In this document: positions 7,034 to 22,450 of the stretch, piece by piece
Numbering within the stretch: the first letter of the stretch is position 1
How the letters are laid out: every line of letters begins with the position of its first letter
The notes under the pieces: generated by a model
Told to the model about the DNA's origin: nothing
Databases searched by the model: none
What the model saw: only the letters and a program-made list of their open reading frames with translations
Translations under genes and position numbers: made by a program
Source: an uncultured Caulobacterales bacterium
GTDB taxonomy: Bacteria; Pseudomonadota; Alphaproteobacteria; Caulobacterales; Maricaulaceae
DNA: 64,000 nucleotides
Direction of reading: 5' to 3'
Assembly: GCA_937928165.1 (NCBI GenBank)
Contig: CALFVT010000002.1
Coordinates: 310,001 to 374,000 of the forward strand

Positions 7034-7190
7034 GACGAGTGTTTTAGAGACTAAAGGCCCAAAATTAACCAGTATAACCATATGTTATTGTAGCAATCAC
7101 TATATTCTATTGGCGGATTTGGAGGAATGGGGGCATAGATACCTTATATGTAACGGCGAGGTCGCCCTTTTAATCTTTGTGGAGGAACAC

Positions 7191-7799
7191 ATGAGAACAT
7201 TAACGTATTTAATTACGGGCGCTTTTGCCGCATCTGTCTTAGCTGCTTGCGGCGGATCTGCTGAAGCAACTAAATCCGTCGACGCCGTGCCAGCTGTATT
7301 TACAGACTCGGGTGCTGTAAAAATCCCCCAGAATTACCGTGAGTGGGTTTATGTTGGAACGCCTTTAACGCCTAATGCCCTTAACGGCGGCGCTGCGCCT
7401 TTCCCTGAATTTCATAATGTCTATGTTGAGACGAATGCCTATAAGCACTTCGAGCGCACAGGCAAATGGGCTGAGGGCACGCAGATCGTAAAAGAATTGG
7501 TATCTGTACGTGAAAATAATAACGACCCAGAAACTGGCGCGTCTGCTGAAGTTAGCGGACTGGGTTATATGATGGGTGAGTTTATTGGTCTTGAACTTAC
7601 AGTCAAAGATAATGATCGTTTTGGCGATCAGCCAGGCGGTTGGGCTTATTTCAGTTTTGGTCACAAGCCAGAGCCATATAATACAACGGCTGAGGCTTTC
7701 CCATCCGAAGCGTGTAATGCCTGTCATGAAACAAATGCAGAAACTGATTTTGTCTTTTCACAGTTCTATCCCGTCATACGGGCCGCTAACGGAACATAA
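7191..7799 (+). CDS. Cytochrome P460 family lipoprotein (paralogue 1)
   Basis: A 202-residue lipoprotein. The start at 7191 has GGAGG just upstream; the lipobox is LAAC near residue 19. The C-terminal part is a cytochrome P460 domain: GGWAYFSFG, then the haem-binding C175-N-A-C-H179 and the terminal QFYPV. Family members are periplasmic c-haem proteins that oxidise hydroxylamine (P460) or bind NO (c'-beta). It retains a lysine in RTGKWAEG, the position where paralogue 2 also has lysine. It is the first of three consecutive P460 genes, 4 bp before the next. Confidence 0.85.
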   Translation: MRTLTYLITGAFAASVLAACGGSAEATKSVDAVPAVFTDSGAVKIPQNYREWVYVGTPLTPNALNGGAAPFPEFHNVYVETNAYKHFERTGKWAEGTQIVKELVSVRENNNDPETGASAEVSGLGYMMGEFIGLELTVKDNDRFGDQPGGWAYFSFGHKPEPYNTTAEAFPSEACNACHETNAETDFVFSQFYPVIRAANGT

Positions 7800-7803
7800 A
7801 TCT

Positions 7804-8451
7804 ATGCGACATAAAATTGCCAGCGGCACTCTAATGGCGCTGGCCGCTTTGTCTCTTATGGCTTGCGGTCAAAACGCGGCTGATACGAAATCTGACAATC
7901 AATCACGCTCTGATACGGCTTCAAGTCGTGTTCAATCGAGTGCTGACGCGCAGCCAGCAGCACAAAATGCGGCATTTTCACCTTATGTCGATGCTCAGGG
8001 TAATATTTCTCGGCCTACAGACTTTCTGACGGGCGAAAACTGGACGCATCTGGGCTCTTGGGGCGTTGTAAACCCTAATGGTGAGGGAAACGGCATTCAT
8101 AATGTTTACACAACATATGACGTTGTGAAAGCTTATCGCGAGACGGGGAAGTTTCCTGACGGAGCCGTTTTGGTCAAAGAAGTTAAAGGGGCACATGCTG
8201 CCGATTTAACCACAGGCCGCGCCCATTGGGGGAGTGATAATGCCGTTTGGTTTGTCTCTATAAAAGATAGCACAGACCGGTTTCCAAATAACCCTTTATG
8301 GGGCGAAGGTTGGGGCTGGGCCCTATTTGAAGCGGGCAATCCTGCCAAACAAGTTGCTAAAGACTACAAAGCCGACTGCCTCGGCTGTCATGTTCCGGCA
8401 AAGGATACGGATTGGATGTATGTTCAAGCCTATCCCGTATTGACCGAATAA
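7804..8451 (+). CDS. Cytochrome P460 family lipoprotein (paralogue 2)
   Basis: A 215-residue lipoprotein (lipobox LMAC near residue 20) with a Ser/Asp/Gln-rich linker and then a P460 domain beginning FSPYVDAQGNISRP. The haem motif is C192-L-G-C-H196, and WGWALFEAG and AYPVL match the P460 ending. It is much closer to paralogue 3 than to paralogue 1: the block from FSPYVD to YPVL aligns almost without gaps. The lysine in ETGKFPDG is present. It is probably co-transcribed with its neighbours (gaps of 4 and 32 bp). Confidence 0.87.
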   Translation: MRHKIASGTLMALAALSLMACGQNAADTKSDNQSRSDTASSRVQSSADAQPAAQNAAFSPYVDAQGNISRPTDFLTGENWTHLGSWGVVNPNGEGNGIHNVYTTYDVVKAYRETGKFPDGAVLVKEVKGAHAADLTTGRAHWGSDNAVWFVSIKDSTDRFPNNPLWGEGWGWALFEAGNPAKQVAKDYKADCLGCHVPAKDTDWMYVQAYPVLTE

Positions 8452-8483
8452 TTGGCCCTATTGCTTTAACGAATGAGATTAAA

Positions 8484-9470
8484 ATGAAGAAAATATTCGC
8501 AGCAATTATAGGCGTAGGTGCAATCGGCTCCATTTATGCTTTGGCTCATGCTCAAAATTTTTCACCTTATGTCGACGATGCGGGTAATATTTCCCGGCCA
8601 GTAGATTTTAAAACTGATCCAGATTGGCTCCATATAGGCGGCTGGTCAGTTGTTAATGAAAATAATGAAGGCAATGGTGTTCATAATGTTTACACCACGC
8701 GGGCAGCTGCGGCATCCTTCAGAGAAAATGGTGTTTTCCCAGACGGCGCACCGCTCGTCAAAGAAGTTCGCGGGGCAAAAGGAGATGATCTATCTACAGG
8801 CCGCGCTCATTGGGCCACAGAAAATCAAGTTTGGTTTGTGTCTATTAAAGACAGTAAAAACCGCTTTTCTGACAACCCACTTTGGGGTGATGGATGGGGT
8901 TGGGCTTTATTCCAAGCTGATAATCCCGCCAAACAAGTTGCAAGCGATTACAAAGCAGATTGTAAAGCCTGTCATGTTCCTGTTGAGAAGAGTGACTGGA
9001 TGTATCTTCATGCTTATGCGCCTGTTTTAGGACCTAATGCTTTGAAAAATGCGCCTGTTTACACGACTGCGGCTTTATCCGGAGCTGCGGTTGAAGGAGC
9101 AGCTATGACGGCATCGAGTGCTGATGATACGCCTTCTGCTGAGACTAAAGAGATTGATCTTGTCTCTGCAGAAAAAGCGTTTAAGCAAACTTGCCGCAGT
9201 TGTCATTCTGACAAAGCGGGCGGACGCGGCATTGGCCCATCCCTAGCTGGCGTCATCGGGCGAGAAGCCGGAACTGTTGACGGGTATAATTATTCAAAAG
9301 CTCTAAAGGACTCTGACGTCGTTTGGACCGCAGAAACAATCGATAGTCATATTACGGATGTTAAAGGTTTTATCCCTAAAAACAGAATGGGAACCATGTT
9401 TCCTCAGGGTGTAAAAGATTCCAAGAAACGGGCTGAAATTATTGCCTATCTTGAAAGTATTTCTCAATAA
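8484..9470 (+). CDS. Secreted cytochrome P460 - cytochrome c fusion (paralogue 3)
   Basis: A 328-residue exported di-haem protein. The signal peptide ends at AHAQN, without a lipobox, unlike its two upstream paralogues. The N-terminal P460 domain has C160-K-A-C-H164. After a linker of about 50 residues comes a class I cytochrome c domain with C237-R-S-C-H241, GIGPSLAGVIGR, and methionine ligands in RMGTMF (M302 or M305). The fusion could pass electrons from the P460 haem straight to a c-type carrier. The family-conserved GK before PDG is GV here (ENGVFPDG), unlike both paralogues. Confidence 0.88.
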   Translation: MKKIFAAIIGVGAIGSIYALAHAQNFSPYVDDAGNISRPVDFKTDPDWLHIGGWSVVNENNEGNGVHNVYTTRAAAASFRENGVFPDGAPLVKEVRGAKGDDLSTGRAHWATENQVWFVSIKDSKNRFSDNPLWGDGWGWALFQADNPAKQVASDYKADCKACHVPVEKSDWMYLHAYAPVLGPNALKNAPVYTTAALSGAAVEGAAMTASSADDTPSAETKEIDLVSAEKAFKQTCRSCHSDKAGGRGIGPSLAGVIGREAGTVDGYNYSKALKDSDVVWTAETIDSHITDVKGFIPKNRMGTMFPQGVKDSKKRAEIIAYLESISQ

Positions 9471-9499: not shown

Positions 9500-9537
9500 A
9501 AAGGCCAGCATGTCACACATATGCTGGCCTTTTCTTT
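9500..9537 (+). terminator. Rho-independent terminator of the P460 cluster
   Basis: An inverted repeat of about 12 bp (AAAGGCCAGCAT / ATGCTGGCCTTT) followed by a T-rich stretch, 30 bp after the last P460 stop codon. Confidence 0.85.
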
Positions 9538-9637: not shown

Positions 9638-10588
9638 TTAGTCTTTTTTCTTTAAAAAGTCAGAGGCACTTGCGCGGGCCCCGCGGCCATCATCACCTTG
9701 ACGCGCATTTTTAAGGTGCTCGAGAGGGCTTATTGGCTCTGGCGTTCGGCGCGCCGCATTTTGGGCGGCTTGGGAAGCATCTACGGAAGAATCTTGTCCT
9801 TGGCTTTGCACTCCGGCCGCATTGTCTTGACCTTGCGCCTCGCCATTTTGCGGCGCAGAATCAGTACCAGATTGACGGTCTTGCCCAGCTTGACTTTGTT
9901 CTGAAGGCGTATTTTGCTGACCTTGGTTGGCGTTTTGCCCAGATGGAGCTTGCCCAGAAGGTAAAGATCCGCCTGGCTGTCCTGAGGGAGCTTGGCCTAA
10001 ACCTTTTAACTGCGCCATAATATCGGCAACAGACGCCGAAGACCCGCCGCGCAATACGGAATTTGAACGGCTTTGATCGTTGCTACTACTTTGACCCTGC
10101 TGATCTGATTGACCGCCCTGCCTCTGTTGACCGGTTTGGCTAGCTTGTCCTTGTTGCCCCCCTTGCCCAGCTGCAAACTGCTCATTTTTAACCTTCTGAG
10201 CGAGCTGCTCCCAAGCTTCTTTCTCTTCGCTTTCAAGATTTGCATCGGCTTTGGCAGCCTCAGACGGTGTATAGGTTAAATCAACAGGCTCATTCGGCCC
10301 CGCTTGCGCGAGGCGTTTGGCCCGTTCTTTAATCAAGTGACGGCGGCTTTCCTCCGGCAAGGCATCAACGGGGGAGAACCCGCGCCCATTACCAACGCCA
10401 GAGCCGCGCGTATTTTTGATGATATCTATAATATCATCTGTATCGCCAGTTTTCTTTTGGGATTTACGCCAATCTTCCTCAGATTGATCCGTTTGGCGGG
10501 TATCCGGCGCGCTTTGCGCATAGGCATGACTTGGCAGGGCCAAAAGGCCCGTGGATAGAAATAACATATATAAAACAGGTCTTATCAT
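9638..10588 (-). CDS. Exported Gln/Gly/Ser-rich protein, last gene of the vWA operon
   Basis: A 316-residue protein I do not recognise. The signal peptide ends at SHAYAQ. The middle (about residues 140-265) is low-complexity and dominated by Gln, Gly, Ser and Asn (GQQGQASQTGQQ-like runs), so it is probably disordered. The N-terminal part holds conserved-looking charged helices (SRRHLIKERAKRLAQ), and the tail is basic (SDFLKKKD). It lies 46 bp after the FGE-like gene, on the same strand, with no terminator between. It is therefore taken as the seventh cistron and may be an extracellular or periplasmic component. Confidence 0.6.
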   Translation of the reverse strand: MIRPVLYMLFLSTGLLALPSHAYAQSAPDTRQTDQSEEDWRKSQKKTGDTDDIIDIIKNTRGSGVGNGRGFSPVDALPEESRRHLIKERAKRLAQAGPNEPVDLTYTPSEAAKADANLESEEKEAWEQLAQKVKNEQFAAGQGGQQGQASQTGQQRQGGQSDQQGQSSSNDQSRSNSVLRGGSSASVADIMAQLKGLGQAPSGQPGGSLPSGQAPSGQNANQGQQNTPSEQSQAGQDRQSGTDSAPQNGEAQGQDNAAGVQSQGQDSSVDASQAAQNAARRTPEPISPLEHLKNARQGDDGRGARASASDFLKKKD

Positions 10589-10634
10589 AGGTTTTACTTA
10601 GTATAATTAAGATGAGCGAGCCATGAACATATGG

Positions 10635-12209
10635 TTAAGAGCTAATTTTACGCACAACCCGCAGACCCGTAAAATCATTACTATCCCCTCGGCGCTGCAT
10701 TAAGCGTGCCGCATAGCGCAGATCAGGCGGCCCGGAGAACCAACTGCCGCCGCGCACAACCCGCTGATTACAAGAGCCGCGCGAATCCGCACTGCCGTCT
10801 GTTGGGGCATCACGCAGATTAAGCGTATTACAATCTTGAGTCCATTCGGCGACATTACCGATCATATCTTTGACGCCGAATTTATTTGCCCCAAGGCTAC
10901 CAGCTGGGAGGGTTTTGTCGGAGGCGGGGTCGATACAATCGGGGTTCGCCCATTTCAGACCGCTCTCATTTGACGCCCCATTGGCAAAGGCACAAAGCGC
11001 CGCTGTAGAACCACCAATAAGCGGGCTAGCATCACCAGCGCGGGCCGCATATTCCCACTGGGCTTCGGTGGGCAGACTATAGGATTGGCCCGATGTTTCT
11101 GACAACCAGGCAACATATTTCTGCGCCTCATCCCATGAAACATTAATTACCGGACGATTACCGCCGCCCCAGCCATTGTCACTTGGTTGACCTATACAGA
11201 CGCCGGCTGAAATACAGGCGTTATATTCTGTAAAAGTGACCTCTTTCACGCTAATGGCAAACATATTAGCAAAGGTAACAGGCCGCTGCGGTTTTTCATT
11301 GGGGCGCGCATGTTTTTCATTATCGCCTGCCCCTAATGACGCCGTGCCGGGGGGGAGGCTCACCATATCGGGGCATGTGCTACAATCTTTAAAAACGCGG
11401 CCCGGTGTCGGTCTTAGGGCCTCAATGGCGGCAATCGCTTCTGCGGCATAAACCCCTTGCGGAAAACTATTTAAATATTGCTGATAGGCATTGGCCGTGT
11501 GCGCCGTTTTAGCCGCCGTCCAGGCGGCCATATCGGCGGCGGTAGCTTGCAAGCGGTCAATCCGGCTTTGGGCCTCGGCAGCATTTTCGCCCCCGGGATA
11601 TTGGGCCAAATAATTTTGATAACTATCCACCGTGTTTGCCTCTGCCGCTGCTTGCCATGCCTGCGCATGGGCGGCAGCGCGCTCAGCCGCTGCTTTGCGC
11701 GCTGCATCCGCGGCCGCCTTGATCTCGGCGATACGGTCACGAGCTTCGGTGGTGTGTAAACCTTCAGGCCAATCTTTGAGATAATCTTCATATCCCGCAA
11801 TGGTGTCGCGGGTTTGGGCGTTCTCCCACGCTTTATCATCATAGGCGTTAATTTCCGCCTGTGCATCATCGGCATGTTTTCCGTCCGGAAAGGCGGCTAT
11901 ATATTCTTGGTAGCCTTCGAGGGTGTCTTTTTCCAACGCCTTCACCCATGCGGCGTCATCTGCGCCGATTACGGGTTTTGCCTCTTCCGTCTCCGGGGCG
12001 GAACTACTACCGGCAGTTTCAATCACCGGAATATCACGCGGGACAACCACTTTGGACGCGAGCCATAAAGCCCCCGCAATCACAAGTCCTAATACGATAA
12101 GACCGGCAATCCAGCGTCCCCAAGGCGCGCGCTCCTCGCGTAGGGCAAATTGATCCCGCTCATGGGGCGGTTTCCATCCACTATCAGGGTTTGGCGTTGG
12201 GTCTGTCAT
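10635..12209 (-). CDS. Membrane protein with repeats and a cysteine-less FGE/SUMF1-like domain
   Basis: A 524-residue protein with a cytoplasmic N-terminus and a membrane helix at about 33-52. Four degenerate repeats of about 35 residues follow at 87-122, 127-162, 184-219 and 229-264 (pattern AW..A....T..GY..YL..FP.G...EA). Residues 279-524 form a formylglycine-generating-enzyme-like domain: VSLPPG, RPVINVSWDEAQKYVAWLS, LPTEAQWEYAARAG, MIGNVAEWTQD, RVVRGGSW. True FGEs have two active-site cysteines after RGGS; here the stretch reads RGGSWFSGPPDLRYAAR with neither, so a structural rather than catalytic role is likely. The start overlaps the stop of the channel gene (TAATG). Confidence 0.85.
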   Translation of the reverse strand: MTDPTPNPDSGWKPPHERDQFALREERAPWGRWIAGLIVLGLVIAGALWLASKVVVPRDIPVIETAGSSSAPETEEAKPVIGADDAAWVKALEKDTLEGYQEYIAAFPDGKHADDAQAEINAYDDKAWENAQTRDTIAGYEDYLKDWPEGLHTTEARDRIAEIKAAADAARKAAAERAAAHAQAWQAAAEANTVDSYQNYLAQYPGGENAAEAQSRIDRLQATAADMAAWTAAKTAHTANAYQQYLNSFPQGVYAAEAIAAIEALRPTPGRVFKDCSTCPDMVSLPPGTASLGAGDNEKHARPNEKPQRPVTFANMFAISVKEVTFTEYNACISAGVCIGQPSDNGWGGGNRPVINVSWDEAQKYVAWLSETSGQSYSLPTEAQWEYAARAGDASPLIGGSTAALCAFANGASNESGLKWANPDCIDPASDKTLPAGSLGANKFGVKDMIGNVAEWTQDCNTLNLRDAPTDGSADSRGSCNQRVVRGGSWFSGPPDLRYAARLMQRRGDSNDFTGLRVVRKISS

Positions 12210-12973
12210 TATGCTGTGCCGCTGAGCCGCAGGATAAGATTATCCAAACAATATTGTCCGGCTTCGTTTAAAGCGCGTTCTTCTTTGGCCTGCACGAGTG
12301 ATTGCATTAAGACCAGCACGGCGCTCATGACGAGGGCGAGCAAGGTGGTTGTAAAGGCAACCCCAAGGCGGGAGGTGACTTGATAAAGAAACTCCTCACT
12401 TTCGGCATTGGCTGGAACCCCCGCATATTGCAAAGCAAACATAATACCCATAACCGTTCCGATAAAACCAAGGGAGGGAATTAACCACGTTAAATAACGC
12501 AGCATGGAATAGCGTAAATCAATTTCATGCATGTAAAGCTCCATGGATGAATTTAAAACTGAAATGGCCTGATCCTCTTTACCAGAGACAGTATATTGAT
12601 CAATGGTGCGGCTAATCATACGCGGCAAAAAGGCGGCGCGTCCATAACGGCGCTGGATGATTCCTTCTTTAATGCGGCCTAAAATCTCGGCGGATAAGTT
12701 TTGCCCATCTGCCGGAAGATAGCCGCGTTTAAGCTGGCTTTCTTCATCACTGGCGGCAGACCAGCGCAGGAATAGCTCGCCAAAACCAATAAAAAGCGCC
12801 ACCCACATGATATTTTGCACGGTAAACGGCCAAAAATCAGCATCCGCATCAAGCAAGATTTCTTGCAATAAATCCGAGGCGGTAAAGCGAATAATCCCAA
12901 TCACGACAATCGCAGCGATAATAGCCACTAAAAAGACAAATAATCTTCGGATTAATCTAGCGTTCTTATTCAT
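12209..12973 (-). CDS. MotA/TolQ/ExbB-like proton channel subunit
   Basis: A 254-residue polytopic protein with hydrophobic segments at about 10-30, 47-68, 143-165 and 190-215. The third carries LGFIGTVMGIMFAL, the hallmark of the MotA/TolQ/ExbB superfamily (LGxxGTVxGM), and the fourth reads VAFTTTLLALVMSAVLVL. Family members form pentameric channels that couple ion flow to movement of a dimeric B subunit (MotB, TolR, ExbD, ZorB). No such classical gene is adjacent. The two upstream vWA genes encode proteins with one N-terminal membrane helix bearing a conserved aspartate and fit that role. The gap to the vWA gene is 24 bp. Confidence 0.85.
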   Translation of the reverse strand: MNKNARLIRRLFVFLVAIIAAIVVIGIIRFTASDLLQEILLDADADFWPFTVQNIMWVALFIGFGELFLRWSAASDEESQLKRGYLPADGQNLSAEILGRIKEGIIQRRYGRAAFLPRMISRTIDQYTVSGKEDQAISVLNSSMELYMHEIDLRYSMLRYLTWLIPSLGFIGTVMGIMFALQYAGVPANAESEEFLYQVTSRLGVAFTTTLLALVMSAVLVLMQSLVQAKEERALNEAGQYCLDNLILRLSGTA

Positions 12974-12997
12974 AAGTTTATCCTAACCTCTTTCGGT

Positions 12998-13975
12998 CTA
13001 ATCGCAAATACCATCGCGGGTTGATGCGAGAGCCATGAACTGTCCATTATTACGTCCGGATAGGCTTTCCATAAATTCAACCGTGCCGTTATAGTCAAAA
13101 TAATTACCGACCACGACCGTGTGAATTTCTTTACGGCCATTATTAAGCTGCGTGATTTCTTGAACTAATCGCCCGGGACCAAAGCCGTTGTTAGCCTTTG
13201 GGTTAGGCAAACCGTCACTGACTAAAAATATAGCCTCACCGGGGCCATTTAACATGTCCTTAAACGCATCCAGCATGGAGGCTGAGCCGCCAAAACTATT
13301 GGTTAGGCTTGATGCAAAGCGAATGGCGTCCCGGCGGGTGCTAGCGGTAATAGGGCGTAAACTGCCGCTGCTTGGCCAAATGCGCGTGCGCGGCCCGCTA
13401 TCGGTTTGCTGAAAGCCAACAACGCGCACTGCATGATTGCTCTGCAGGGAGTTAATGATTCGCGACGTGGCCTTATTCACAGAGGCCTCATGCCCGCCAA
13501 GGCAGCGATTCATATCAAGGGCCAGAACAATATCATCTTTTTTGGTTTTCATCCCTAAAAACCGAAAAGACACGGTTGTCTTTTCGGGGGCCGGGGCGGG
13601 ACGCTCTTCAATCGGTTCGGGCACAGGCACTGCCTTAGGCACTGCGGCAGCTTTTTTCTCAAGCAAGGCAGCTTCCGCCCCGCGCAGGGCCGCCAAAAGC
13701 TTATCAGCTTCGCTTTTTATATCGGACACATTTTGCGCCGCGGCCGAGCGTTTAGCTTCAAGCGCCTTTTTCTTTTCAACCGTTTCAATTTGGCTATCTT
13801 TTGCGGCGCGTAGTAGATCTGAAATTGCATTTTCCGGTGTGCGCTCTTGAATTTCTTTTTGATAAAAGGGCAAAAGAATAATCGCCAGAAGTGCAAAGGC
13901 TCCCATGGCCGCCGCAAAGAGATCAATAGCGGACATAGAAAAAACTTCAATATCGCGTGATGGGCGTCTTTTCAT
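12998..13975 (-). CDS. Membrane-anchored vWA-domain protein with degenerate MIDAS
   Basis: A 325-residue protein. A short basic N-terminus leads to a membrane helix at about 14-36 with an aspartate at its start (SAIDLFAAAMGAF, D18). A coiled coil (about 45-110), a Pro/Ala-rich linker (about 112-132) and a von Willebrand A domain follow. The metal site expected as DxSxS reads D154-M-N-R-C, so metal-dependent adhesion is probably lost, although VSDGLPNP later in the domain is kept. It is paralogous to the gene upstream, with identical layout, and is linked to it by an ATGA overlap. Confidence 0.82.
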   Translation of the reverse strand: MKRRPSRDIEVFSMSAIDLFAAAMGAFALLAIILLPFYQKEIQERTPENAISDLLRAAKDSQIETVEKKKALEAKRSAAAQNVSDIKSEADKLLAALRGAEAALLEKKAAAVPKAVPVPEPIEERPAPAPEKTTVSFRFLGMKTKKDDIVLALDMNRCLGGHEASVNKATSRIINSLQSNHAVRVVGFQQTDSGPRTRIWPSSGSLRPITASTRRDAIRFASSLTNSFGGSASMLDAFKDMLNGPGEAIFLVSDGLPNPKANNGFGPGRLVQEITQLNNGRKEIHTVVVGNYFDYNGTVEFMESLSGRNNGQFMALASTRDGICD

Positions 13976-14922
13976 CGAGCCCTCCCGACAAAATCACCGC
14001 GGTTACGATTGGCGAGCTCTTGCAAGAAAACGGTCAAAGCCTTGTCTTGTGTATAATTCCCAATCGCCACCGTATGTATTTCGGCCCGCCCGCGGTTACG
14101 GTTGCTCACATTAGCAATAATGTCTCCGGGGCGGCCGTCATCCGGCGCACCGTCCGACATAAGGATAACCACTTCTGGACGCATATTCAGGGCACGTATC
14201 ATCGCTGCTTGGGTCGGGGTTCCACCGCCAAAACGCCGAGACAGGCCCGAGACAAAATTACGGGCTTGCTGCACAGTGGGCTCGTCCGCAGCGGTAAAAC
14301 GCTCATTCCTTGGAAAGCTGTCATAGCTTGGCCCGCCTCTATAGCCAATAATAGCAAAGCGGTTGTCGGGTTTTAATACGTCTAAAATTTCATTTAACGC
14401 CCGTTCGACATTCCGTCTATGGGCCTTCATAGAGCCGGACATATCAACGACGACAACAACTTCTTTTTTATCTGTCGCGAGGCCAAGGATAGAAAATTCA
14501 ACCCCTTCATTTTGGCTGCGCGGCGGCTCCTGAACGGGGTCCGGCTCGGGTATAGGCTCTGGGTCGGGGCGCGGAAGCGGCGGCGGGTCAGGGATTTCAA
14601 TTTCTGCGGTTTGGCGCTGCACCTCCCGAAGGCGGTTTTCAACCTCTGACATTTCCTCTTGAGTGGTACGATATTGTTTGTCAAGCAGCCGAATTTCGGC
14701 CTGTATGGCGCGGATTTGACTGACTTCTGATTGGGTTGAGCTGGCGACAAGCCGGCGTTTTCTAACGAGCTCTTCAAGCTCTTCAAAAGATTGGTCTGTG
14801 CCCCCTTTTTGATAATAGGGAAATAAAACCAAGACGATGAGAATAAATGCCCCCAATGCAGCGGCAAATAGGTCCAGGGCAGAAATAGAGAAAATGGAAA
14901 TATTGCGCCGCTTTGACCGCAT
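13972..14922 (-). CDS. Membrane-anchored vWA-domain protein with intact MIDAS
   Basis: A 316-residue protein. The start at 14922 (MRSKRRNISIF) is preferred because it overlaps the previous stop as TAATG; a 9-residue longer form is possible. The layout is a basic tail, a membrane helix at about 12-35 with SALDLFAAALGAF (D17), a coiled coil about 43-108, a Pro-rich linker 111-135 rich in PxP, and a vWA domain. The domain has a complete MIDAS: D160-M-S-G-S, a threonine in GGGTPTQAA, and an aspartate in LMSDGAPDD. The transmembrane aspartate matches the ion-carrying residue position of MotB/ExbD/TolR-type proteins (inference from placement). Confidence 0.84.
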   Translation of the reverse strand: MRSKRRNISIFSISALDLFAAALGAFILIVLVLFPYYQKGGTDQSFEELEELVRKRRLVASSTQSEVSQIRAIQAEIRLLDKQYRTTQEEMSEVENRLREVQRQTAEIEIPDPPPLPRPDPEPIPEPDPVQEPPRSQNEGVEFSILGLATDKKEVVVVVDMSGSMKAHRRNVERALNEILDVLKPDNRFAIIGYRGGPSYDSFPRNERFTAADEPTVQQARNFVSGLSRRFGGGTPTQAAMIRALNMRPEVVILMSDGAPDDGRPGDIIANVSNRNRGRAEIHTVAIGNYTQDKALTVFLQELANRNRGDFVGRAR

Positions 14923-15758
14923 TAACGTCCGCCGCGCAATATTCGCCAAAGTGTTCGGCGTTGAATCTCTTTGGCTCTGTCCTTCTCCCTTTGGTTAATG
15001 GAGTCAGATAAAGCGATAGAATCGCCTAAAACTTCGCGGTCAATCTCTTCATTGATAACATCATTAGAACGTTTCAGGCGTCCATCAAGGTCTGTCATGA
15101 ATAAGACTTCAAGCCCGTCAAGCTCTGCTTCAAAGGATGTAAATTCGGCCTGGTCTCGGGTTGTAATAAGAGCCTGCGCATATTCCGCCGTTGCCGTGCC
15201 GTGAGCTGGGTCTTCATTTGCGCCGAGGCGGTACATGGAATCCGATAATATCTGCCGCAGAAATAATGCGTCTTCGATAATCACCGCATTAAATTCTACA
15301 TCCGTTAAAGCCGCATCATAGGCTTCAAGGCTATTAATTTGACCCGTTATAAACGGCTCACATATAGCGGCGAAATCTGCTAAATAAGCCATGTTTGAAA
15401 CCGTTAGCCCCGGTGCTGCTTGGCGGAGAACTGGATTGGCAATATTTTCAATGACGTCCAAAATATGTGTGTCCGCAGACACCTCTCCATCTCCATAGGC
15501 CGCAAGAGCAGCCCTATATTCCGGCGTTACATCCCGGCCTAGCTCTTGGGTTAGGCGAAAGAATTGATAGCGGACTTCGGGATCATCGGACGAAAAGTCT
15601 GCCATGATATTAATGCAGTAATCAGGCTCTGCTTGAAGGGTTATGGCTTGTGGTGCTTCACTCTCAACACTCTGAGTAAAGGCACTCTGGGCAAAGGCAC
15701 TCGTTACCGGCGCAATCGTGGCCAGATATAACGCCAAGGATATGCGCAAGTGCTGCAT
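14922..15758 (-). CDS. Exported protein of unknown function (vWA operon)
   Basis: A 278-residue protein I do not recognise. A signal peptide ends near SAFAQ, and the short sequence after it repeats (SAFAQSAFTQS), reflecting a small DNA duplication. The mature protein is acidic and mostly helical by composition, with two cysteines (CINIMADF near residue 48 and AAICEPF near 132) that may form a disulfide. The C-terminus turns basic (NQREKDRAKEIQRRTLW). It is coupled to both neighbours by TAATG overlaps, which argues that it works with the vWA proteins in the periplasm. Confidence 0.7.
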   Translation of the reverse strand: MQHLRISLALYLATIAPVTSAFAQSAFTQSVESEAPQAITLQAEPDYCINIMADFSSDDPEVRYQFFRLTQELGRDVTPEYRAALAAYGDGEVSADTHILDVIENIANPVLRQAAPGLTVSNMAYLADFAAICEPFITGQINSLEAYDAALTDVEFNAVIIEDALFLRQILSDSMYRLGANEDPAHGTATAEYAQALITTRDQAEFTSFEAELDGLEVLFMTDLDGRLKRSNDVINEEIDREVLGDSIALSDSINQREKDRAKEIQRRTLWRILRGGR

Positions 15759-17767
15759 TATTGTATGGCAGCGGTTTGAAAGAGGGATTGCGGGGCCTGC
15801 GAGGCTGTGCCCACATCTTGGCCTGCACGGTAAGTTCTAAGTTTATCGTTCTGGCCAGGTTTTGATACGCGCACAGCGCCGTCGGCTTCACCATTCACAA
15901 AATTACCTTCAAGGCTGTAACTGCTTTGCGGGCCATGAATAATCATGAGCCCCGCGCCATTAGCCCGTCCGCCGCGAGCATAGCCGTAATATTCAACCGC
16001 TGTTCCATCCGTATTTTGAATAGCTCCTGCGCCGCTACCATTGGCCTGTCCGCCCTCACAAACGCCCATCCATGTTCCAGTCGTGCCATTATTATGGCTA
16101 AAGGTGCAGCGCGAGGCGACCGTATCTAAGGAACGCTGGCGGCTTGAATATAGCTCTTGCAACTTTGATTGAAGGTCTTCATAGCGAATCGCCGTAATGG
16201 TTTCGCTACTATCGAGCAAGTCTACCGTCACGGTTGTTTGCTGCTCAAGCGCCGGAACGATCGAAGACAGATAATTGCGGCCTACAGATTTTGAGCGGCT
16301 GTTCAGGTTGATGGCCTGTGTTGCGGCCACAACGGTGCCTTGAATAGCCAGTTGGGTTAAAATATTATTGCCGATATTTGTTCGTCTTGCGCGGCGAAGA
16401 CAATTTTCCAGCTCTCTTTGACTGCGGGTATTATTACAGCGGGCCCGGCCACCGCCGCTGTTTGCAATGGCGGCCCCGGCTGCAACAGCGCCTAAAACAG
16501 CAAAAAATGTGGCCTCGTTTTGCTTTCGCGCTAATCTTCGTCGCTCCTCAAGAACTTTATATTCGGCTGAGATCATATCGCGCATTTGCACGCCCATTTC
16601 GCCGTTGTGAATGCCGTCAAAAATACGAAGAGATTGCACAGATAAATATTTACGCTCCGCATCCAAAAGGCGCTCCGCATAACGCAGGCGTGCGTTATAA
16701 TCAGGATCATCAGAGCCGACAAAGGTTAAGGCCGCCAAAGATTGATCATATTTAGAAATCGCTGCGGCCTTGCTGGCCATAACAGCTTTATTGATATCTG
16801 TATCATTTATAATCTTGACGATCTTATCCGCCATAGCATTAGAAAAAACATCTTCTAGCGGGTCAATAGATCCGTCATTGGCCCTGTTAAGCTGCAAAAG
16901 CGCTGTTTTATTCAATTTAACTTTTTCAACCGGATAAGCGGCAATCGCATTTTTGGTTCGTCTGTTATTTAGGCTTTTTGTTGGGACATTGACGCGGTTA
17001 TCTTTGGCAATATATGAGATAAAATCCAAAGGCTGGGCCTCGGTTTCAAATTGCCCATTTTGCAGCGTTGTCAACTCGGTATTGGTATCGCTTTGGCCCG
17101 TGCCGGCAGCATAAGGTATAAGCGGCGCACTCGCAAATAAAACCCCTTGAGTAGCCGCAGATGCGCGGCGATCTGTATGAACACTAACAAGAGGCGTTAC
17201 AAGGTCGCCAAACGTTAAAGGCTCGCTCTCCAGCATTTTTCGCGGATCAGGGTATGAATAAGTGACGAAGTCAACGGTCACTGCGCTTGGCAGGCTTTCC
17301 GCTTGCGTAATCGGCTCTGATGTGAGGTTGCCATCCGCATCAAGTTTGACCGCATGGGGCGAGAGCAAAACACTATGTTCAGGGAGGCGGGCCGCCATTT
17401 CTTTAAATAAAGACAAGGCAAAATAATTAGACTTTACAACGACACTATCGGCAACTGTTTGGCGCTGTGCCGCGTCACTCTTGTTGCTGAGCGTTCCGCC
17501 TATAGCTGCCCGGTCAAATGCGTCGTAATATTTATCTTTGGCAGCGGTTTCAACAACCGCGGGGTAGCGAATAACTGTTAATACACTTCCTGCGGGCGCG
17601 CTCGCCTTCAGTGGCTCTGTTTTGCCGCTATTGACAATCGCAGTTTGGCTTGCCCCAGTGGCTGTAGAGGCGCAACCACCCACCAAAGCCGTGGTGGTTA
17701 AAAGCATCACTGAAATACATGTTGTCTTTAGTGGTTTTAAAACGTTTATTGATGAAATAATCGTCAT
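15758..17767 (-). CDS. Large lipoprotein with C-terminal MORN-like repeats (vWA operon, first gene)
   Basis: A 669-residue protein. The start at 17767 has AGGAGAG upstream; the signal ends with lipobox LVGGC (C32). The central region (about 300-420) is helical and charged. A short glycine/alanine-rich hydrophobic stretch lies near 425-445 (VLGAVAAGAAIANSGGG). Residues about 555-640 hold three MORN-like units (CEGGQANGSGAGAI, YARGGRANGAGLMI, FVNGEADGAVRV). The protein should sit in the outer or inner membrane facing the periplasm. It is the first cistron of the seven-gene operon and could be its envelope anchor. I do not recognise the N-terminal domain. Confidence 0.72.
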   Translation of the reverse strand: MTIISSINVLKPLKTTCISVMLLTTTALVGGCASTATGASQTAIVNSGKTEPLKASAPAGSVLTVIRYPAVVETAAKDKYYDAFDRAAIGGTLSNKSDAAQRQTVADSVVVKSNYFALSLFKEMAARLPEHSVLLSPHAVKLDADGNLTSEPITQAESLPSAVTVDFVTYSYPDPRKMLESEPLTFGDLVTPLVSVHTDRRASAATQGVLFASAPLIPYAAGTGQSDTNTELTTLQNGQFETEAQPLDFISYIAKDNRVNVPTKSLNNRRTKNAIAAYPVEKVKLNKTALLQLNRANDGSIDPLEDVFSNAMADKIVKIINDTDINKAVMASKAAAISKYDQSLAALTFVGSDDPDYNARLRYAERLLDAERKYLSVQSLRIFDGIHNGEMGVQMRDMISAEYKVLEERRRLARKQNEATFFAVLGAVAAGAAIANSGGGRARCNNTRSQRELENCLRRARRTNIGNNILTQLAIQGTVVAATQAINLNSRSKSVGRNYLSSIVPALEQQTTVTVDLLDSSETITAIRYEDLQSKLQELYSSRQRSLDTVASRCTFSHNNGTTGTWMGVCEGGQANGSGAGAIQNTDGTAVEYYGYARGGRANGAGLMIIHGPQSSYSLEGNFVNGEADGAVRVSKPGQNDKLRTYRAGQDVGTASQAPQSLFQTAAIQ

Positions 17768-18049: not shown

Positions 18050-18616
18050 TTACCCAATAAGTTTAATCGTTCTGAAGGTTAGCGAGACGCGCCTTGAGCG
18101 CGGAACTCTCAAGTTTTCAACTAAATCACTTTTACGCGCTGCAATCCCATGTCGCCATTTCAACCTAGCCTCTCTGCTCAAGGCCAAAAGACTTTGCGGC
18201 ATCAGGCGTAAGTTATGAGCCTCACCACCCCTATCAAACTGCATATCCACGGCTCCGCCTAAACTAAGTGAGGCGATATGATTTCCAAAACAGGGGACGC
18301 AATCAATATGCGCTGCGATACCTTGGCCAGGTTCGTATTCATTTATAATGACTTGATCCGGTATTTGCGCAAATACCTCTTGCTCGACCAGTTTAGATGA
18401 AATTTCGCTCAGCCAACTTGGCAGCGGGCCAAGCTTCATATCGTGAGATATAGCCCGGCTGCGATAATCATAGATGTACCCATAATGCTGCACGCGGCGC
18501 CTCAAATCGGCTCGCCACTCTTGCTTGTCAATCCGTTCTAAAAGCTCGACGCTCATAGCCGCTGAGATAAAGTTGGGGATATAGCGAAGCCCCGATATGT
18601 TAGAAATTGCATCCAT
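18050..18616 (-). CDS. AlkB-like 2-oxoglutarate/Fe(II) dioxygenase
   Basis: A 188-residue enzyme of the AlkB family. The iron ligands are visible as H-x-D in AAHIDCVPCFG and a distal histidine in KWRHGI; the 2-oxoglutarate-binding arginines are in RRVSLTFR. YEPGQGI matches the family's N/D-x-Y-x-x-G region. Members repair alkylated bases or demethylate RNA or protein. The sequence resembles ALKBH8/bacterial AlkB-like proteins more than E. coli AlkB, so the substrate is uncertain. It stands alone, next to the left end of the integrated element but outside it. Confidence 0.87.
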   Translation of the reverse strand: MDAISNISGLRYIPNFISAAMSVELLERIDKQEWRADLRRRVQHYGYIYDYRSRAISHDMKLGPLPSWLSEISSKLVEQEVFAQIPDQVIINEYEPGQGIAAHIDCVPCFGNHIASLSLGGAVDMQFDRGGEAHNLRLMPQSLLALSREARLKWRHGIAARKSDLVENLRVPRSRRVSLTFRTIKLIG

Positions 18617-18810
18617 TTATTATTTTGCTTTGGTTTAAAGACCCATGTTTTAAAACCGTTATGCCCACCTAGGGCACTGCCAACCTTATTCGTCATAGTA
18701 TGGACATAGCCTTTGAAACGCTTTGGTTCAAATTGATAAGCCTTTTCTCTAAGTCAACTTAGAATAGGCTCTGGTAAGGGAGGGGAGGATTTAATGGTTG
18801 CAATTTTCGA

Positions 18811-18868
18811 TGGTACGGATGGTCGGACTCGAACCGACACTCCAAAGGAACCGGATTTTGAATCCGGC
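18811..18868 (-). tRNA. 3' half of a split tRNA-Leu(CAA), left attachment site
   Basis: Read on the minus strand, this is the anticodon arm onward of a tRNA-Leu: GCCGGATTCAAAATCCGG, a long variable arm, the T arm (GTCGGTTCGAGTCCGAC), the acceptor 3' strand and an encoded CCA. The 5' half is missing here; it lies at 30811-30851. The first 15 bases are identical to the end of that half and form the attachment core (18854-18868). Joining the halves gives a complete tRNA-Leu(CAA) with a perfect anticodon stem. This copy is not functional. Confidence 0.88.
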
Positions 18869-18887
18869 AACTTTAGTCATAAACTAT

Positions 18888-18944
18888 TGTTTTTATTATA
18901 TATAATTCTGTATTATATGTGAAGTGTGTAAGAGATTGTGTAAG
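18888..18944. repeat. Left arm-type integrase site repeats
   Basis: TGTTTTTATTATATAT (18888-18903), AGTGTGTAAG (18923-18932) and TGTGTAAG (18937-18944) lie just inside the left core. The same three motifs, in the same orientation, lie just inside the right core (30715-30784), so they are probable arm-binding or directionality-factor sites. Confidence 0.5.
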
Positions 18945-18949
18945 TATTT

Positions 18950-19283
18950 AGCCTAAATTCACGTCCCAGACACGATGAAATTCGCGCCGATTCGCGTGTG
19001 AAATCAAGCATATTGTTTCTAATTTACGAGAAAGCCCTCAGAACGTCCCTGAGAGCAACCTATAAATTTTTCGATGAAAGGTGCATTCGAGAAATTAAGA
19101 CCTCAGGCGGCGTTTGCGCGGCCTATTAAACCTTCCTCAAAACAGGGTTTTGGGGCTTGCACCAAAACCCATGATCAGCCCTCTTAATGGGGGAGCGGCG
19201 TCAACTCGAAAATTGGGGGCGACCTTTAGGGGGAGCCGATTTTCGCGGTTTACGCCGCCGGGGGCAAAGCCCCCATTAGTCTT
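18950..19283. other. Non-coding left end of the element
   Basis: About 330 bp without a credible gene. It has a GC-rich patch with inverted segments (around 19139-19280: CAAAACAGGGTTTTGG, GGGGGC.../GCCCCC) that could fold, but no recognised RNA family. Confidence 0.4.
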
Positions 19284-19398
19284 ATTACTCACCTCACGCT
19301 CAATCTATTCCTCATTTCACGCAATACCTATTCCTCACCTCACGCACATTCTACTACCCAACTCACGCACACTGTGTTACCCATCTCACGCAAATAAA
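19284..19398. repeat. Five tandem 23-bp degenerate repeats
   Basis: Units start at 19284, 19307, 19330, 19353 and 19376. Each is exactly 23 bp with consensus ATTnCnCAnCTCACGCAnAnnnT; the CTCACGCA core varies least. The array ends 12 bp before the ATPase start codon. The fixed spacing of about two helical turns suggests binding of a multimeric protein on one face of DNA: operator array, iteron-like origin or parS-like site. Confidence 0.75.
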
Positions 19399-19410
19399 TG
19401 AGATTCGTAT

Positions 19411-20703
19411 ATGGCAAACAATGATACCTTAGCACCACGGCATTTACAGGCTGAATTGGAAGCTGCATTAGCGGCAAGTCGCATTGTCAATATCATTGGC
19501 CCTCGGCAAGCGGGAAAGACAACCTTTGTGCGCGATATATTTGCCTCAGAACGCTCAGGAGCGCGTTTTGTGACCTTAGATGACCAAGTCCTGCTCAAAG
19601 CCATAGAAAACGACCCAGAGAGCCAGATACGCGCACTAATGACCGATATAGGCGACAATCCTTTGATCATTGACGAGGCGCAACGCTCAAAAGCAATGGC
19701 TTTAGCGATTAAAAAAATCGTGGATGAGGATCGCCGCAAGGGACAATTTATACTCACAGGCTCATCAAACGTGTTTACGTCACTGGAAATCGCGGATTCA
19801 CTTGCCGGACGAATGCGAACAATAAAACTCTGGCCGATGTCAATTGCAGAAACCTTACGCCGCAAGCCTTCCCAGATTTTGGATTGGGGGATAGCCAAGT
19901 CCCCGAACTTAGCGGATTTAGGAAGCCCCGATAAACTAACACGTGCCGAATATATCGACTTTATCCTTCGGGGAGGCTTCCCTGAGATACGGGAACTCGA
20001 AACCCGAGATAGAGGGCGGCAATACAGGGACTATGTAGATTCGGTTGTCGATAGAGACGTTGCTGATATTTTACGTGTTAGAAAAACAGATGCATTGCGG
20101 CAATTGATCGAACAACTGGCCGCTAGAACAGCTTGTGAAACAAACACGACAACGCTGTCGCGTCTAATTGCAACAGACCGCAAGACTGTGGACGAGTATA
20201 TGGACGTTCTGTTTAGACTTTCTATGATCGTCAAACTCCGTGCTTGGACATCAAGCGAGAGCAAGCGTGATATCAAGCAACCCAAATATCATTTTGCAGA
20301 TACAGGCATAGCCTCCGCTCTGCGCGAGATAACACCAGATAGTTTTGGCATCGACGCAAACCCGACCGCGCTGGGAGCAATGCTTGAAACATTTATTCTT
20401 GGTGAGTTGCAAAAATCACTACCCTATCAGCAACATGATTTTCGACTCTACCATTGGCGCAATGAGCGGCAAAAAGAAATCGACATTCTCGCCGAAAGTG
20501 CCACGCGGTTAGTCGGCATAGAAATCAAAGCCGCGAGCACGGTGAATGATGAAAGCTTGAAAGCGTTAAAAGATTTCGCAAAAACTGGCCCCGGTAAATC
20601 AAAACAGTTCACGGGAATTGTGTTTTACCTTGGCGAACACAAGCTCACATTTGGTGATGGAATTTTCGCGCTGCCTGTAAGTATTTTGTGGTCGAAAAAT
20701 TAA
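19411..20703 (+). CDS. AAA ATPase with DUF4143 domain
   Basis: A 430-residue protein of the AAA_14/DUF4143 family. Walker A is GPRQAGKTTF (about residues 30-39), Walker B LIIDEAQRS (about 85-93), and sensor 1 LTGSSN. The DUF4143 part (about 185-430) includes RGGFPEI, DTGIASAL and a PD-(D/E)XK-like ending (HWRNERQKEIDIL followed by GIEIKAAS). Many members are accessory-genome proteins of unsettled role, proposed in mobile elements or toxin-like modules. It is the first gene inside the left end, directly behind the repeat array, which may regulate it. Confidence 0.85.
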   Translation: MANNDTLAPRHLQAELEAALAASRIVNIIGPRQAGKTTFVRDIFASERSGARFVTLDDQVLLKAIENDPESQIRALMTDIGDNPLIIDEAQRSKAMALAIKKIVDEDRRKGQFILTGSSNVFTSLEIADSLAGRMRTIKLWPMSIAETLRRKPSQILDWGIAKSPNLADLGSPDKLTRAEYIDFILRGGFPEIRELETRDRGRQYRDYVDSVVDRDVADILRVRKTDALRQLIEQLAARTACETNTTTLSRLIATDRKTVDEYMDVLFRLSMIVKLRAWTSSESKRDIKQPKYHFADTGIASALREITPDSFGIDANPTALGAMLETFILGELQKSLPYQQHDFRLYHWRNERQKEIDILAESATRLVGIEIKAASTVNDESLKALKDFAKTGPGKSKQFTGIVFYLGEHKLTFGDGIFALPVSILWSKN

Positions 20704-20948
20704 ACCAAAAACTCACACTCCAAAAATAGGCCGAAATTCCTAAAAACACCCCTTTTAAGGTCATGGCCCGGCATTTTCCTCAGGTGCCATGGGGGATTCC
20801 GCCGATTCCACGTCCCAGCAAAATATTGCGTGGGCCAGAAAAAACGATGTGCAGACAATGGGTTAACCCCATTCTGGGACACGCCCTTTATCTTGCCCTC
20901 ACTAAACCCGCCCCATTTGTCAACCCAGCTGACCCGATTCCGTGCCAT
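20700..20948 (-). CDS. Small hypothetical protein
   Basis: A possible 82-residue protein starting MARNRVSWVDKWGG, supported by AGGAGA six bases before the ATG. It converges on the DUF4143 gene with a 4-bp overlap of ends. No family is recognised, and the opposite strand is also open here, so the call rests mainly on the ribosome site. Confidence 0.3.
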   Translation of the reverse strand: MARNRVSWVDKWGGFSEGKIKGVSQNGVNPLSAHRFFWPTQYFAGTWNRRNPPWHLRKMPGHDLKRGVFRNFGLFLECEFLV

Positions 20949-21180
20949 AGACTTTCTCCTATTTTCATTGATGTCATCATATTTTTCCTTTCTGCACATC
21001 ACTGTATTGAACGCCTTTGGCGCACTTTTCTTAATTGGTATCCCGACGGTTCATGCACTACTCCGTGCTCGATATGACTATCCGCACATGCTGTTTTCAG
21101 AGGGGCGTGAGATGTCCAAAAGCACTCGCGACGCACTGCGGATATAGATTGTCAAAGTTCTATCCGGTGCCGGCAAGATA

Positions 21181-21239
21181 GCGGGATCATCTCTCCCGCG
21201 ACCCCGTCAAGGGGCGCCATTCATCTCAGTCACCTGAGA
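21181..21239 (-). ncRNA. Structured 3' flank of the IS110 element, candidate bridge RNA part
   Basis: Three consecutive hairpins lie within 59 bp: GCGGGA/TCCCGC (21181-21199), CCCC/GGGG with a 5-nt loop (21202-21214), and TCTCAG/CTGAGA with a 4-nt loop (21224-21239). IS110-family elements encode a bridge RNA in a non-coding end that guides target and donor recognition; in the IS1111 subgroup it lies downstream of the transposase, as here. The assignment as bridge RNA is inference. Confidence 0.4.
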
Positions 21240-21299
21240 CAAATTAGGTGATATGTGTTCGTTTTTCTCCCATAATTATGTTTTGATTAGTGTCTGTCA

Positions 21300-22346: not shown

Positions 22347-22450
22347 AATGGTCTCCTATGAGTTGCTTGCGAATATACGCAGACTAACTCCGTTAAGACC
22401 CAACGCCAAAATCCCCGAAGGAGAGCTGGCGGCGGGTTTACCATAGCACT

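What the first reader, a model, noticed from the sequence alone, without database searches (positions are those of the whole stretch)
9638..17767. Seven-gene operon: an ion-channel subunit with vWA proteins, an inactive FGE-like protein and envelope lipoprotein
The junctions (TAATG, TAATG, ATGA, 24 bp, TAATG, 46 bp) show one co-translated unit. It encodes a MORN lipoprotein, an exported protein, two membrane-anchored vWA proteins, a MotA/TolQ/ExbB subunit, a membrane FGE-like protein and an exported Gln-rich protein. MotA/ExbB-type subunits always work with a B subunit; here the vWA proteins are the only candidates. An FGE-like protein next to a motor recalls GldK with GldLM of type 9 secretion, but the other parts do not match. 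I know of no described system with this set.
Basis: partly seen in the sequence, partly recalled or inferred. Interest (0 to 1): 0.88.

Follow-up and report, generated by a model that had tools for sequence, protein, structure and literature searches.

The report
Proton motor with paired vWA rotor
Seven neighbouring genes in an alphaproteobacterium look like a cell-envelope motor driven by an ion gradient, whose turning part would carry two different von Willebrand-type domains and which travels with an apparently dead enzyme domain and an outer-membrane-type lipoprotein; the motor's core idea has already been predicted in print, but I did not find this seven-part version and its recurring dead-enzyme partner described.

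Summary
The operon is real and as described. It behaves as one module: among 200 genomes of the order, the MORN lipoprotein and the exported helical protein occur in 7 genomes each, the same seven that carry this MotA type with vWA partners. But this core is not undescribed: PMC12204202 (2025) predicts such TolQ plus paired 'TPH-vWA' motors. Not found in print: the recurrent membrane-anchored FGE-fold protein without FGE's cysteine pair, beside the motor in 7 of 9 chosen lineage representatives, though absent near 8 of 8 other Verrucomicrobiota loci; the fixed asymmetry of the pair (intact MIDAS in vWA1, Cys in the site of vWA2, 36 of 36 each); and kinase/PP2C/FHA versions. T9SS also pairs a 5:2 motor with a dead FGE fold: a working analogy, not membership. 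Purpose unknown.

The parts
15758..17767 (-). Lipoprotein, 669 aa, N-terminal alpha/beta part, long helices, C-terminal MORN repeats (P0007); GTG start at 17785 also possible
   Evidence: Lipobox-type Cys32 in 32 of 34 aligned rows, invariant in 30 of 30 rows of A4; MORN fold of about 548-664; same 7 of 200 genomes of the order as the vWA-linked MotA
14922..15758 (-). Exported all-helical protein X, 278 aa (P0006), two conserved Cys (48, 133)
   Evidence: AlphaFold2 model, mean pLDDT 87; no PDB match at E<=0.001; same 7 of 200 genomes; Cys in 34 of 35 and 35 of 35 rows
13972..14922 (-). vWA1, 316 aa (P0005): TM helix with Asp17, coiled-coil-like and Pro-rich linker, vWA domain with intact MIDAS DMSGS; proposed B subunit
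   Evidence: MIDAS 36 of 36, Asp17 33 of 36 rows plus 3 rows cut by start-codon choice whose DNA encodes it
12998..13975 (-). vWA2, 325 aa (P0004): TM helix with Asp18, linker, vWA domain with a MIDAS Ser replaced by Cys158; proposed second B subunit
   Evidence: Asp18, Cys158 and Cys324 each 36 of 36; Pfam VWA_3 only below its cut-off
12209..12973 (-). MotA/TolQ/ExbB-type A subunit, 254 aa (P0003)
   Evidence: Pfam MotA_ExbB E 9e-12; T173, T200, T209, T210, G172, G176, P166 invariant in 19 of 19 rows from four phyla
10635..12209 (-). Membrane-anchored protein, 524 aa (P0002): TM 34-52, repeats, C-terminal FGE-fold domain without the FGE Cys pair
   Evidence: Pfam FGE-sulfatase E 2.3e-46; closest solved PvdO, then PorK and a chain named 'Lipoprotein, putative'; 8 Cys positions, 32-34 of 36 rows; TM
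9638..10588 (-). Exported low-complexity Gln/Gly/Ser-rich protein, 316 aa (P0001)
   Evidence: sequence; matched in 30 of 35 related loci
9500..9532 (-). 12-bp inverted repeat after the last gene, possible terminator between converging genes
   Evidence: not in the scan's list

Best explanation
A trans-envelope motor of the MotA/ExbB/TolQ 5:2 class, driven by the proton (or sodium) gradient. Five copies of the 12209-12973 product form the channel; the two different vWA proteins form a heterodimeric rotor, their N-terminal helices in the pore with Asp17/Asp18 as the ion-binding residues and their vWA heads in the periplasm on coiled-coil and Pro-rich stalks. The heads work on envelope partners encoded beside them: the membrane-anchored FGE-fold protein, probably not an FGE enzyme, used as a docking hub, plus the outer-membrane-type MORN lipoprotein, helical protein X and the Gln-rich protein. 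vWA1 has an intact metal (MIDAS) motif and could grip an acidic ligand; vWA2 has that motif changed, with a Cys that may pair with Cys324, so the rotor would be built asymmetric: one gripping and one passive head. Shown: genes, order, conservation, co-occurrence, motifs. Inferred: co-transcription, 5:2 assembly, heterodimer, ion flow, periplasmic side of the heads, the disulfide, force on the outer membrane, and which partner is gripped.
For: Single TM helix that begins with an invariant Asp in both vWA proteins and their relatives in four phyla (A2: Asp17 18 of 18; 42 of 48 ORFs matching the vWA profile in 29 further loci, six of those rows being from the window's own family). A subunit keeps Thr and GT..G residues in 19 of 19; that these line the ion path is recalled and as in PMC12204202. 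Own genome: 4 MotA_ExbB genes and 3 ExbD genes, the ExbD genes all near the other three, none near this one; no MotB_plug hit. MORN and X in 7 of 200 genomes each, the same seven with the strong MotA match. FGE-fold protein within about 10 kb of this MotA type in 7 of 9 chosen lineage representatives, against 0.5-5% expected per genome. vWA pair asymmetric in 36 of 36. The same core was predicted independently with complex models (PMC12204202, section read). T9SS offers a precedent for a 5:2 motor thought to act on a ring that contains an FGE-like fold without the catalytic Cys (PMC12421860, abstract and two sections).
Against: No complex was modelled here; no phenotype is known. 11 of the 19 Verrucomicrobiota loci I fetched (of 43 genomes matched) have no TPH-vWA near the matched gene, and 0 of the 8 that do have one show an FGE domain in the fetched stretch, so the FGE partner is not universal. 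FGE-fold proteins are common (1-17 per genome). Shared descent and my choice of representatives make the 6e-11 far too small as a probability. MORN lipoprotein and X were not seen in the nine distant loci or outside the family in the 200 genomes of the order, and were not sought further; the lipoprotein of the operons from other classes of the phylum is not detectably homologous to MORN (hhalign probability 4.5). Only three segments of P0003 pass a hydropathy cut. The own genome also has a solitary MORN paralogue without a motor. Promoter-like matches are twice the expectation, so internal promoters are possible.
Confidence: 0.6

Rival explanations
1. The same membrane complex is a sensor or gated channel rather than a force generator: binding of a ligand by the vWA1 MIDAS or the FGE-fold domain opens or closes ion flow, and elsewhere reports to Ser/Thr kinase, PP2C and FHA proteins.
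For: Related channel genes lie with FHA, PP2C and kinase genes in Latescibacterota (L038), one Verrucomicrobia locus (L045) and a Rhizobium plasmid (L114); with FHA and kinase in Kiloniellales (L037); with PP2C in Bacteroidota (L040). In Latescibacterota and L045 kinase and FGE domain are one protein.
Against: The window's operon has no kinase, phosphatase or FHA domain; the characterised members of the A-subunit family couple ion flow to movement (recalled).
Confidence: 0.2
2. Anti-phage defence system of the Zorya type, with the vWA proteins in place of ZorB.
For: Weak PADLOC matches: ZorA2 2e-4 (P0003), ZorB1 0.014-0.015 in the N-termini of both vWA proteins; patchy presence in the family: 7 with, at least 20 without.
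Against: P0003 is only 254 aa; no Pfam peptidoglycan-binding, nuclease or helicase domain in the seven proteins; no hit in the phage collection and one distant plasmid hit; whole-operon conservation.
Confidence: 0.06
3. A relative of the type 9 secretion or gliding machinery (GldL/M with GldK).
For: FGE-fold protein next to a 5:2-class motor gene; GldK NCBIfam match 3e-22 and PorK among the next-best solved relatives after PvdO; for the L084 FGE domain PorK and a near-identical 'putative lipoprotein' chain come before PvdO.
Against: GldK match 79.5 bits against a cut-off of 350; no GldL, GldM, GldN or Sov-type match among the seven proteins; PvdO is closer for the window protein; the FGE protein has an inner-membrane-type TM helix and no lipobox was seen.
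Confidence: 0.05
4. The vWA proteins form a periplasmic scaffold and the MotA-like protein is a non-conducting membrane anchor; no motor at all.
For: Some related loci have a neighbouring one-TM protein whose helix lacks the Asp (L042-L044).
Against: In the window's group the Asp never varies, and the Thr residues do not vary in the 19 rows aligned.
Confidence: 0.08

Closest known systems
TPH-vWA / TolQ-like motors of PMC12204202 (Mol Biol Evol 2025; prediction only)
   Same: TolQ/MotA-type gene with a heterologous pair of TM-vWA genes, Asp in the pore helix, no TolR/ExbD gene, no SHLS motif
   Different: The section read does not mention an FGE-fold protein, MORN lipoprotein, X, Gln-rich protein, a Cys-altered second MIDAS or kinase/PP2C/FHA variants; its figure and supplement were not seen; sequence kinship with its Idiomarina example was not tested
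T9SS PorLM motor with PorKN ring (PMC12421860)
   Same: 5:2 motor with a protein of repurposed FGE fold that lacks the catalytic Cys
   Different: PorM has Ig-type domains, not vWA; PorK belongs to an outer-membrane-anchored ring; here the FGE protein has a TM helix; GldK model far below its cut-off
Zorya ZorAB
   Same: MotA-like plus a one-TM partner with Asp; weak profile matches
   Different: no long ZorA tail, no peptidoglycan-binding domain, no effector genes
PvdO (dihydropyoverdine dehydrogenase)
   Same: closest solved relative of the FGE-fold domain, E 8e-37
   Different: 172 bits against the PvdO cut-off of 500; here membrane-anchored with repeats and next to a motor

Membership tests
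TPH-vWA motor (PMC12204202) | tolQ/motA-type gene adjacent to vWA genes | tested here: met
TPH-vWA motor (PMC12204202) | vWA proteins have one TM helix with the conserved Asp, no SHLS motif | tested here: met
TPH-vWA motor (PMC12204202) | heterologous pair of vWA genes | tested here: met
   vWA1 and vWA2 30% identical; both in 35 of 35 loci
TPH-vWA motor (PMC12204202) | no tolR/exbD/motB beside it | tested here: met
TPH-vWA motor (PMC12204202) | sequence homology to the Idiomarina loihensis example | not tested
TPH-vWA motor (PMC12204202) | 5:2 complex with Asp facing a Thr ring | not testable with these tools
   no complex prediction available; Thr residues invariant in 19 rows
Canonical MotAB / ExbBD / TolQR | cognate MotB, ExbD or TolR gene | tested here: not met
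   the three ExbD-family hits all lie near the other three MotA_ExbB genes
Zorya | ZorA tail, ZorB peptidoglycan-binding domain, ZorC/D/E effectors (recalled) | tested here: not met
   P0003 is 254 aa; no such domains among the seven proteins
Type 9 secretion | GldK/PorK equivalog score and GldL/GldM/GldN partners | tested here: not met
   79.5 of 350 bits; no partner model matched in the seven proteins
Formylglycine-generating enzyme | catalytic Cys pair | tested here: not met
   a solved FGE's motif rggsylchdsyc aligns to rggsyvsgpkfl in L038; the window protein reads RGGSWFSGPPDL at the same motif (direct alignment of the window protein to FGE at these residues was not printed)
PvdO | NCBIfam equivalog cut-off | tested here: not met
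   172.4 of 500 bits

The most novel reading that the evidence does not exclude
A distinct class of envelope machine in which a rotor made of two unlike vWA heads, one gripping through its metal site and one with the site closed by cysteine, steps against a dead FGE-fold hub. Together with T9SS this would make 'ion motor plus repurposed FGE hub' a recurrent design principle, here in a constitutive seven-gene form and elsewhere in a form where the hub is fused to a Ser/Thr kinase and switched by phosphorylation.
Probability: 0.3. Interest if true: 0.82.

Novelty: new variant of a known kind. Interest (0 to 1): 0.62.

Why it matters
5:2 ion motors are few, and the known ones (flagellum, Ton, Tol, T9SS/gliding, Zorya; recalled) drive different processes. 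A compact operon that is present or absent largely as a whole and whose parts should span both membranes gives a testable unit for the predicted vWA motors, for which PMC12204202 (section read) gives no phenotype, and suggests a shared partner fold with T9SS. Named isolates carry it (Litorimonas cladophorae KCTC 23968, Algimonas arctica KCTC 32513: L006, L020).

Tried and rejected
Plasmid or phage origin: one distant plasmid match (Rhizobium leguminosarum BT01, 47%), none in phages. Flanks: the operon sits in different surroundings in different sub-clades (three contexts shared by several loci, many seen once), so no single conserved site; no empty-site comparison was made. Fold of X: no PDB match at E<=0.001, which does not show a new fold. 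N-terminal part of the MORN lipoprotein: the lists are filled by MORN and long-helix folds, so it is untested. Homology of the MORN lipoprotein to the lipoprotein of the operons from other classes: none detected. A generic vWA search of the phylum picks up many ordinary vWA domains (125 of 398 genomes; most listed matches begin after profile position 90), so the MotA profile was used for distribution: 16 of 398 genomes at E<=1e-10, of which I looked at the surroundings in six besides the window's (G025, G040, G122, G132, G195, G342); the weakest, G003, was not examined.

PMC12204202 is the only paper I saw that joins vWA proteins and TolQ-type motors; several papers listed (among them PMC4488436 and PMC6775972, which hold both 'ExbB' and 'von Willebrand') were not opened. 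Supplements could not be read, and most subscription papers and preprints are not held. Fig. 4c of PMC12204202 was seen only through its legend, so it may show FGE genes that the text does not name. Seen: PMC12204202 section 8 whole plus passages; PMC12421860 abstract and two sections; PMC12505986, PMC7159879 and PMC12635249 passages only; PMC11556061 start of abstract.

Rows dropped or qualified: L090-L092 come from the window's family and two of them repeat loci of L002-L036 (equal contig lengths for L020/L091 and L021/L090); L040, L041, L086, L087 are too short to judge the FGE partner; the 9 genomes were chosen by me, one or two per lineage, after seeing the data; G524 (same order) carries a related MotA with a one-TM Asp protein but no vWA match beyond that helix and was left out of them; G582 was left out because its contig is 5.9 kb. 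In one search, 10 of 200 genomes pass E<=0.001: the seven, G524 (5e-83) and two marginal ones (5e-5, 3e-4) not examined. The number of genomes of the same family is at least 27, as unmatched genomes were listed only in part. The taxonomy of the G-handle loci is not told; 'other classes of the phylum' is all that is known of L084-L088 and L112.
Full report
OBSERVATION. The window is part of a 2.6-Mb draft genome (G000:C2:310001-374000) whose nearest named relatives by the channel subunit carry labels such as Hellea, Litorimonas, Algimonas, Robiginitomaculum, Hyphomonadaceae and Caulobacterales; a genome announcement calls Algimonas a prosthecate member of a family of the order Caulobacterales (start of abstract, PMC11556061). 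Order: lipoprotein with MORN repeats, exported protein X, vWA1, vWA2, MotA-type channel subunit, FGE-like protein, Gln-rich exported protein. Pfam supports MotA_ExbB, FGE-sulfatase and VWA (vWA2 only below its cut-off); the MORN repeats are supported by a predicted structure. Co-transcription is inferred: promoter-like matches in the region are twice the shuffled expectation and one strong terminator-like hairpin lies inside the vWA2 gene.

CONSERVATION. A scan of one genome for each of 84,980 species with the channel subunit gave 44 loci: 35 from this bacterial group (71-91% identical) and 9 distant ones (44-53%). In the 35, gene order is kept in 35 of 35 and all seven genes are found in 28; vWA1, vWA2, MotA and FGE are present in 35, X in 34, MORN in 33, the Gln-rich protein in 30; the MORN and X misses and four of five Gln-rich misses are at contig ends. 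Because those loci were found through the channel subunit, an independent test was made: profiles of MORN and X against 200 genomes of the order hit 7 genomes each, the same seven that carry this channel subunit at E<=3e-127. An eighth genome, G524, has a related channel gene with a different partner and neither MORN nor X; two more have marginal MotA matches. At least 20 genomes of the same family lack all three. So the operon is kept or lost largely as a unit, and it is not essential to the family. One exception to strict all-or-none: the window's genome has a second, solitary MORN paralogue. The Gln-rich protein was not tested in this way.

THE B SUBUNIT. Both vWA proteins have one hydrophobic helix near the N-terminus (19-37 in vWA2 and 16-34 in vWA1), preceded by basic residues, that starts with S-A-(L/I)-D. 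In an alignment of 18 such proteins, 12 from the window's group and 6 from four distant loci of four lineages, the Asp is one of only seven invariant columns. Within the window's group it is present in 36 of 36 vWA2 and in 33 of 36 vWA1 rows; the other three rows (L004, L005, L011) were cut by start-codon choice and their DNA encodes it. In the further loci L037-L045 and L084-L112, 48 ORFs in 29 loci matched the vWA profile (six of these rows are from the window's family): a script found the Asp helix in 40, reading by eye adds two whose N-terminus lay beyond the script's limit (L093, L109), and six lack it: three ordinary vWA proteins 1.8-2.7 kb from the channel gene (L099, L100, L104) and three proteins next to the channel gene in Hyphomicrobium, Rhodoblastus and Xanthobacter, whose helix has no Asp. 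One of the 42, in G524, has the helix but no vWA motif. The channel subunit keeps T173, T200, T209, T210 and the GT..G residues in 19 of 19 rows. The genome holds three more MotA/ExbB genes, and its three ExbD-family genes lie near them (C15 and C20), none near this one; MotB_plug gives no hit while it rings in 4 of 14 control genomes (assembly 96% complete). This is good circumstantial evidence that the vWA pair is the rotor partner.

ALREADY IN PRINT. A literature search found PMC12204202 (Mol Biol Evol 2025). Its section 8, read whole, describes a family of TM-tethered vWA proteins that co-occur with tolQ, without tolR/exbD, mostly in heterologous pairs, with a transpore helix carrying the conserved Asp, and reports AF3 models with the helices inside the pentamer. 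The window's motor core meets every feature of that description that I could test. PMC12505986 and PMC7159879 (passages) do not mention such a pair in what I saw.

WHAT IS ADDED HERE. (1) The FGE-fold partner. In the window's group the FGE protein is beside the channel gene in 35 of 35 loci. In loci from other classes of the phylum (L084, L085, L088, L112; 4 of 4 with enough flank) a membrane protein with the same C-terminal domain (with PEGA repeats in the two tested by Pfam) precedes the channel gene; in two Latescibacterota and one Verrucomicrobia locus the domain is fused behind a Ser/Thr kinase; in Kiloniellales it lies 5 kb away. It is absent from the fetched stretch in 8 of 8 further Verrucomicrobiota loci with TPH-vWA genes, out of 19 fetched and 43 matched. 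Counting FGE domains per genome (1 to 17), chance would place one within about 10 kb in 0.5-5% of genomes; it is seen in 7 of 9 lineage representatives (nominal P 6e-11, not to be taken literally because of shared descent and my choice of representatives). In G342 the only FGE match of the genome at E<=1e-8 is the one beside the motor. The domains of the window group and of those four loci align over 213 columns (hhalign E 9e-25). The FGE Cys pair is missing (alignment for L038; motif RGGSWFSG in the window protein). Eight conserved Cys positions fit a periplasmic domain. Other enzyme activities, such as a PvdO-like one, are not excluded.

(2) The asymmetric pair. vWA1 has D-M-S-G-S in 36 of 36; vWA2 has D-[M/L]-[N/S]-[R/K]-C in 36 of 36, and a second Cys near its end in 36 of 36; no other Cys column reaches half of the rows. 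The simplest reading is a metal site that works in one head and is closed in the other. In L095-L097 (Verrucomicrobiota) one partner has E-S-S-G-S instead, while the pairs of L084-L088 and L112 have both motifs intact, so asymmetry recurs but is not a rule.

(3) A regulated form elsewhere. FHA, PP2C and kinase genes surround the channel gene in Latescibacterota (L038), in L045 and on a Rhizobium leguminosarum plasmid (L114); FHA and kinase in Kiloniellales (L037), PP2C in Bacteroidota (L040). The window's operon has none of these.

MECHANISM. Most likely: ion flow through the pentamer turns the vWA pair; the periplasmic heads act on the FGE-fold hub and through it, or directly, on the MORN lipoprotein, X and the Gln-rich protein at the outer membrane. 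T9SS is the precedent: PorLM is thought to drive a ring whose PorK uses an FGE-like fold, without the catalytic Cys, as a docking hub (PMC12421860, abstract and two sections). This is a likeness in working principle; the GldK model scores 79.5 bits against a cut-off of 350 and no other T9SS part was matched, so it is not a member. What the force is for is unknown; patchy presence fits an accessory surface or envelope function rather than housekeeping, but that is inference.

VERDICT. A genuine, tightly conserved module; a new variant of a kind that was predicted in 2025; interest 0.62. On checking, the confidence of the best explanation was lowered from 0.62 to 0.60 because co-transcription rests on junctions and conserved order alone and internal promoter- and terminator-like matches exist.

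Noticed in passing
G000:C12:3096-4988 (L113): A second MORN lipoprotein paralogue (E 5e-260 to the profile) stands alone, without X, vWA or MotA genes in the 14 kb fetched; an ORF nearby looks by eye like a transposase fragment.
   Followed up: partly
window 7110-9470: Three tandem cytochrome P460 genes, the last with a cytochrome c domain, after an aminotransferase-fold gene that looks like 5-aminolevulinate synthase (that name is recalled; Pfam gives only Aminotran_1_2 above its cut-off).
   Followed up: no
L004, L005, L011 (vWA1) and L084, L088 (first vWA): The open frame of the vWA gene reaches upstream of its first ATG/GTG/TTG and a CTG codon stands where the start is expected; possible CTG starts in two lineages.
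   Followed up: partly
L085 10548-11852, L112 7394-8749, L094 10324-11784, L109 9538-10794: A protein of 418-486 aa without a Pfam match sits between the channel gene and the vWA pair in these loci.
   Followed up: no
L042-L044: Hyphomicrobium, Rhodoblastus and Xanthobacter have a relative of the channel subunit next to a long coiled-coil-like one-TM protein whose helix has Thr/Lys and no Asp.
   Followed up: no
L114 (NZ_CP125637.1 153387-174052): Rhizobium leguminosarum BT01 megaplasmid carries the channel gene with an Asp-helix protein (249-residue open frame), an FHA, two PP2C and two kinase genes.
   Followed up: partly
window 18050-24767: Upstream of the operon: 2OG-Fe(II) oxygenase, AAA_14/DUF4143 ATPase, IS110-type transposase and HerA-like (DUF87) helicase genes.
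   Followed up: no
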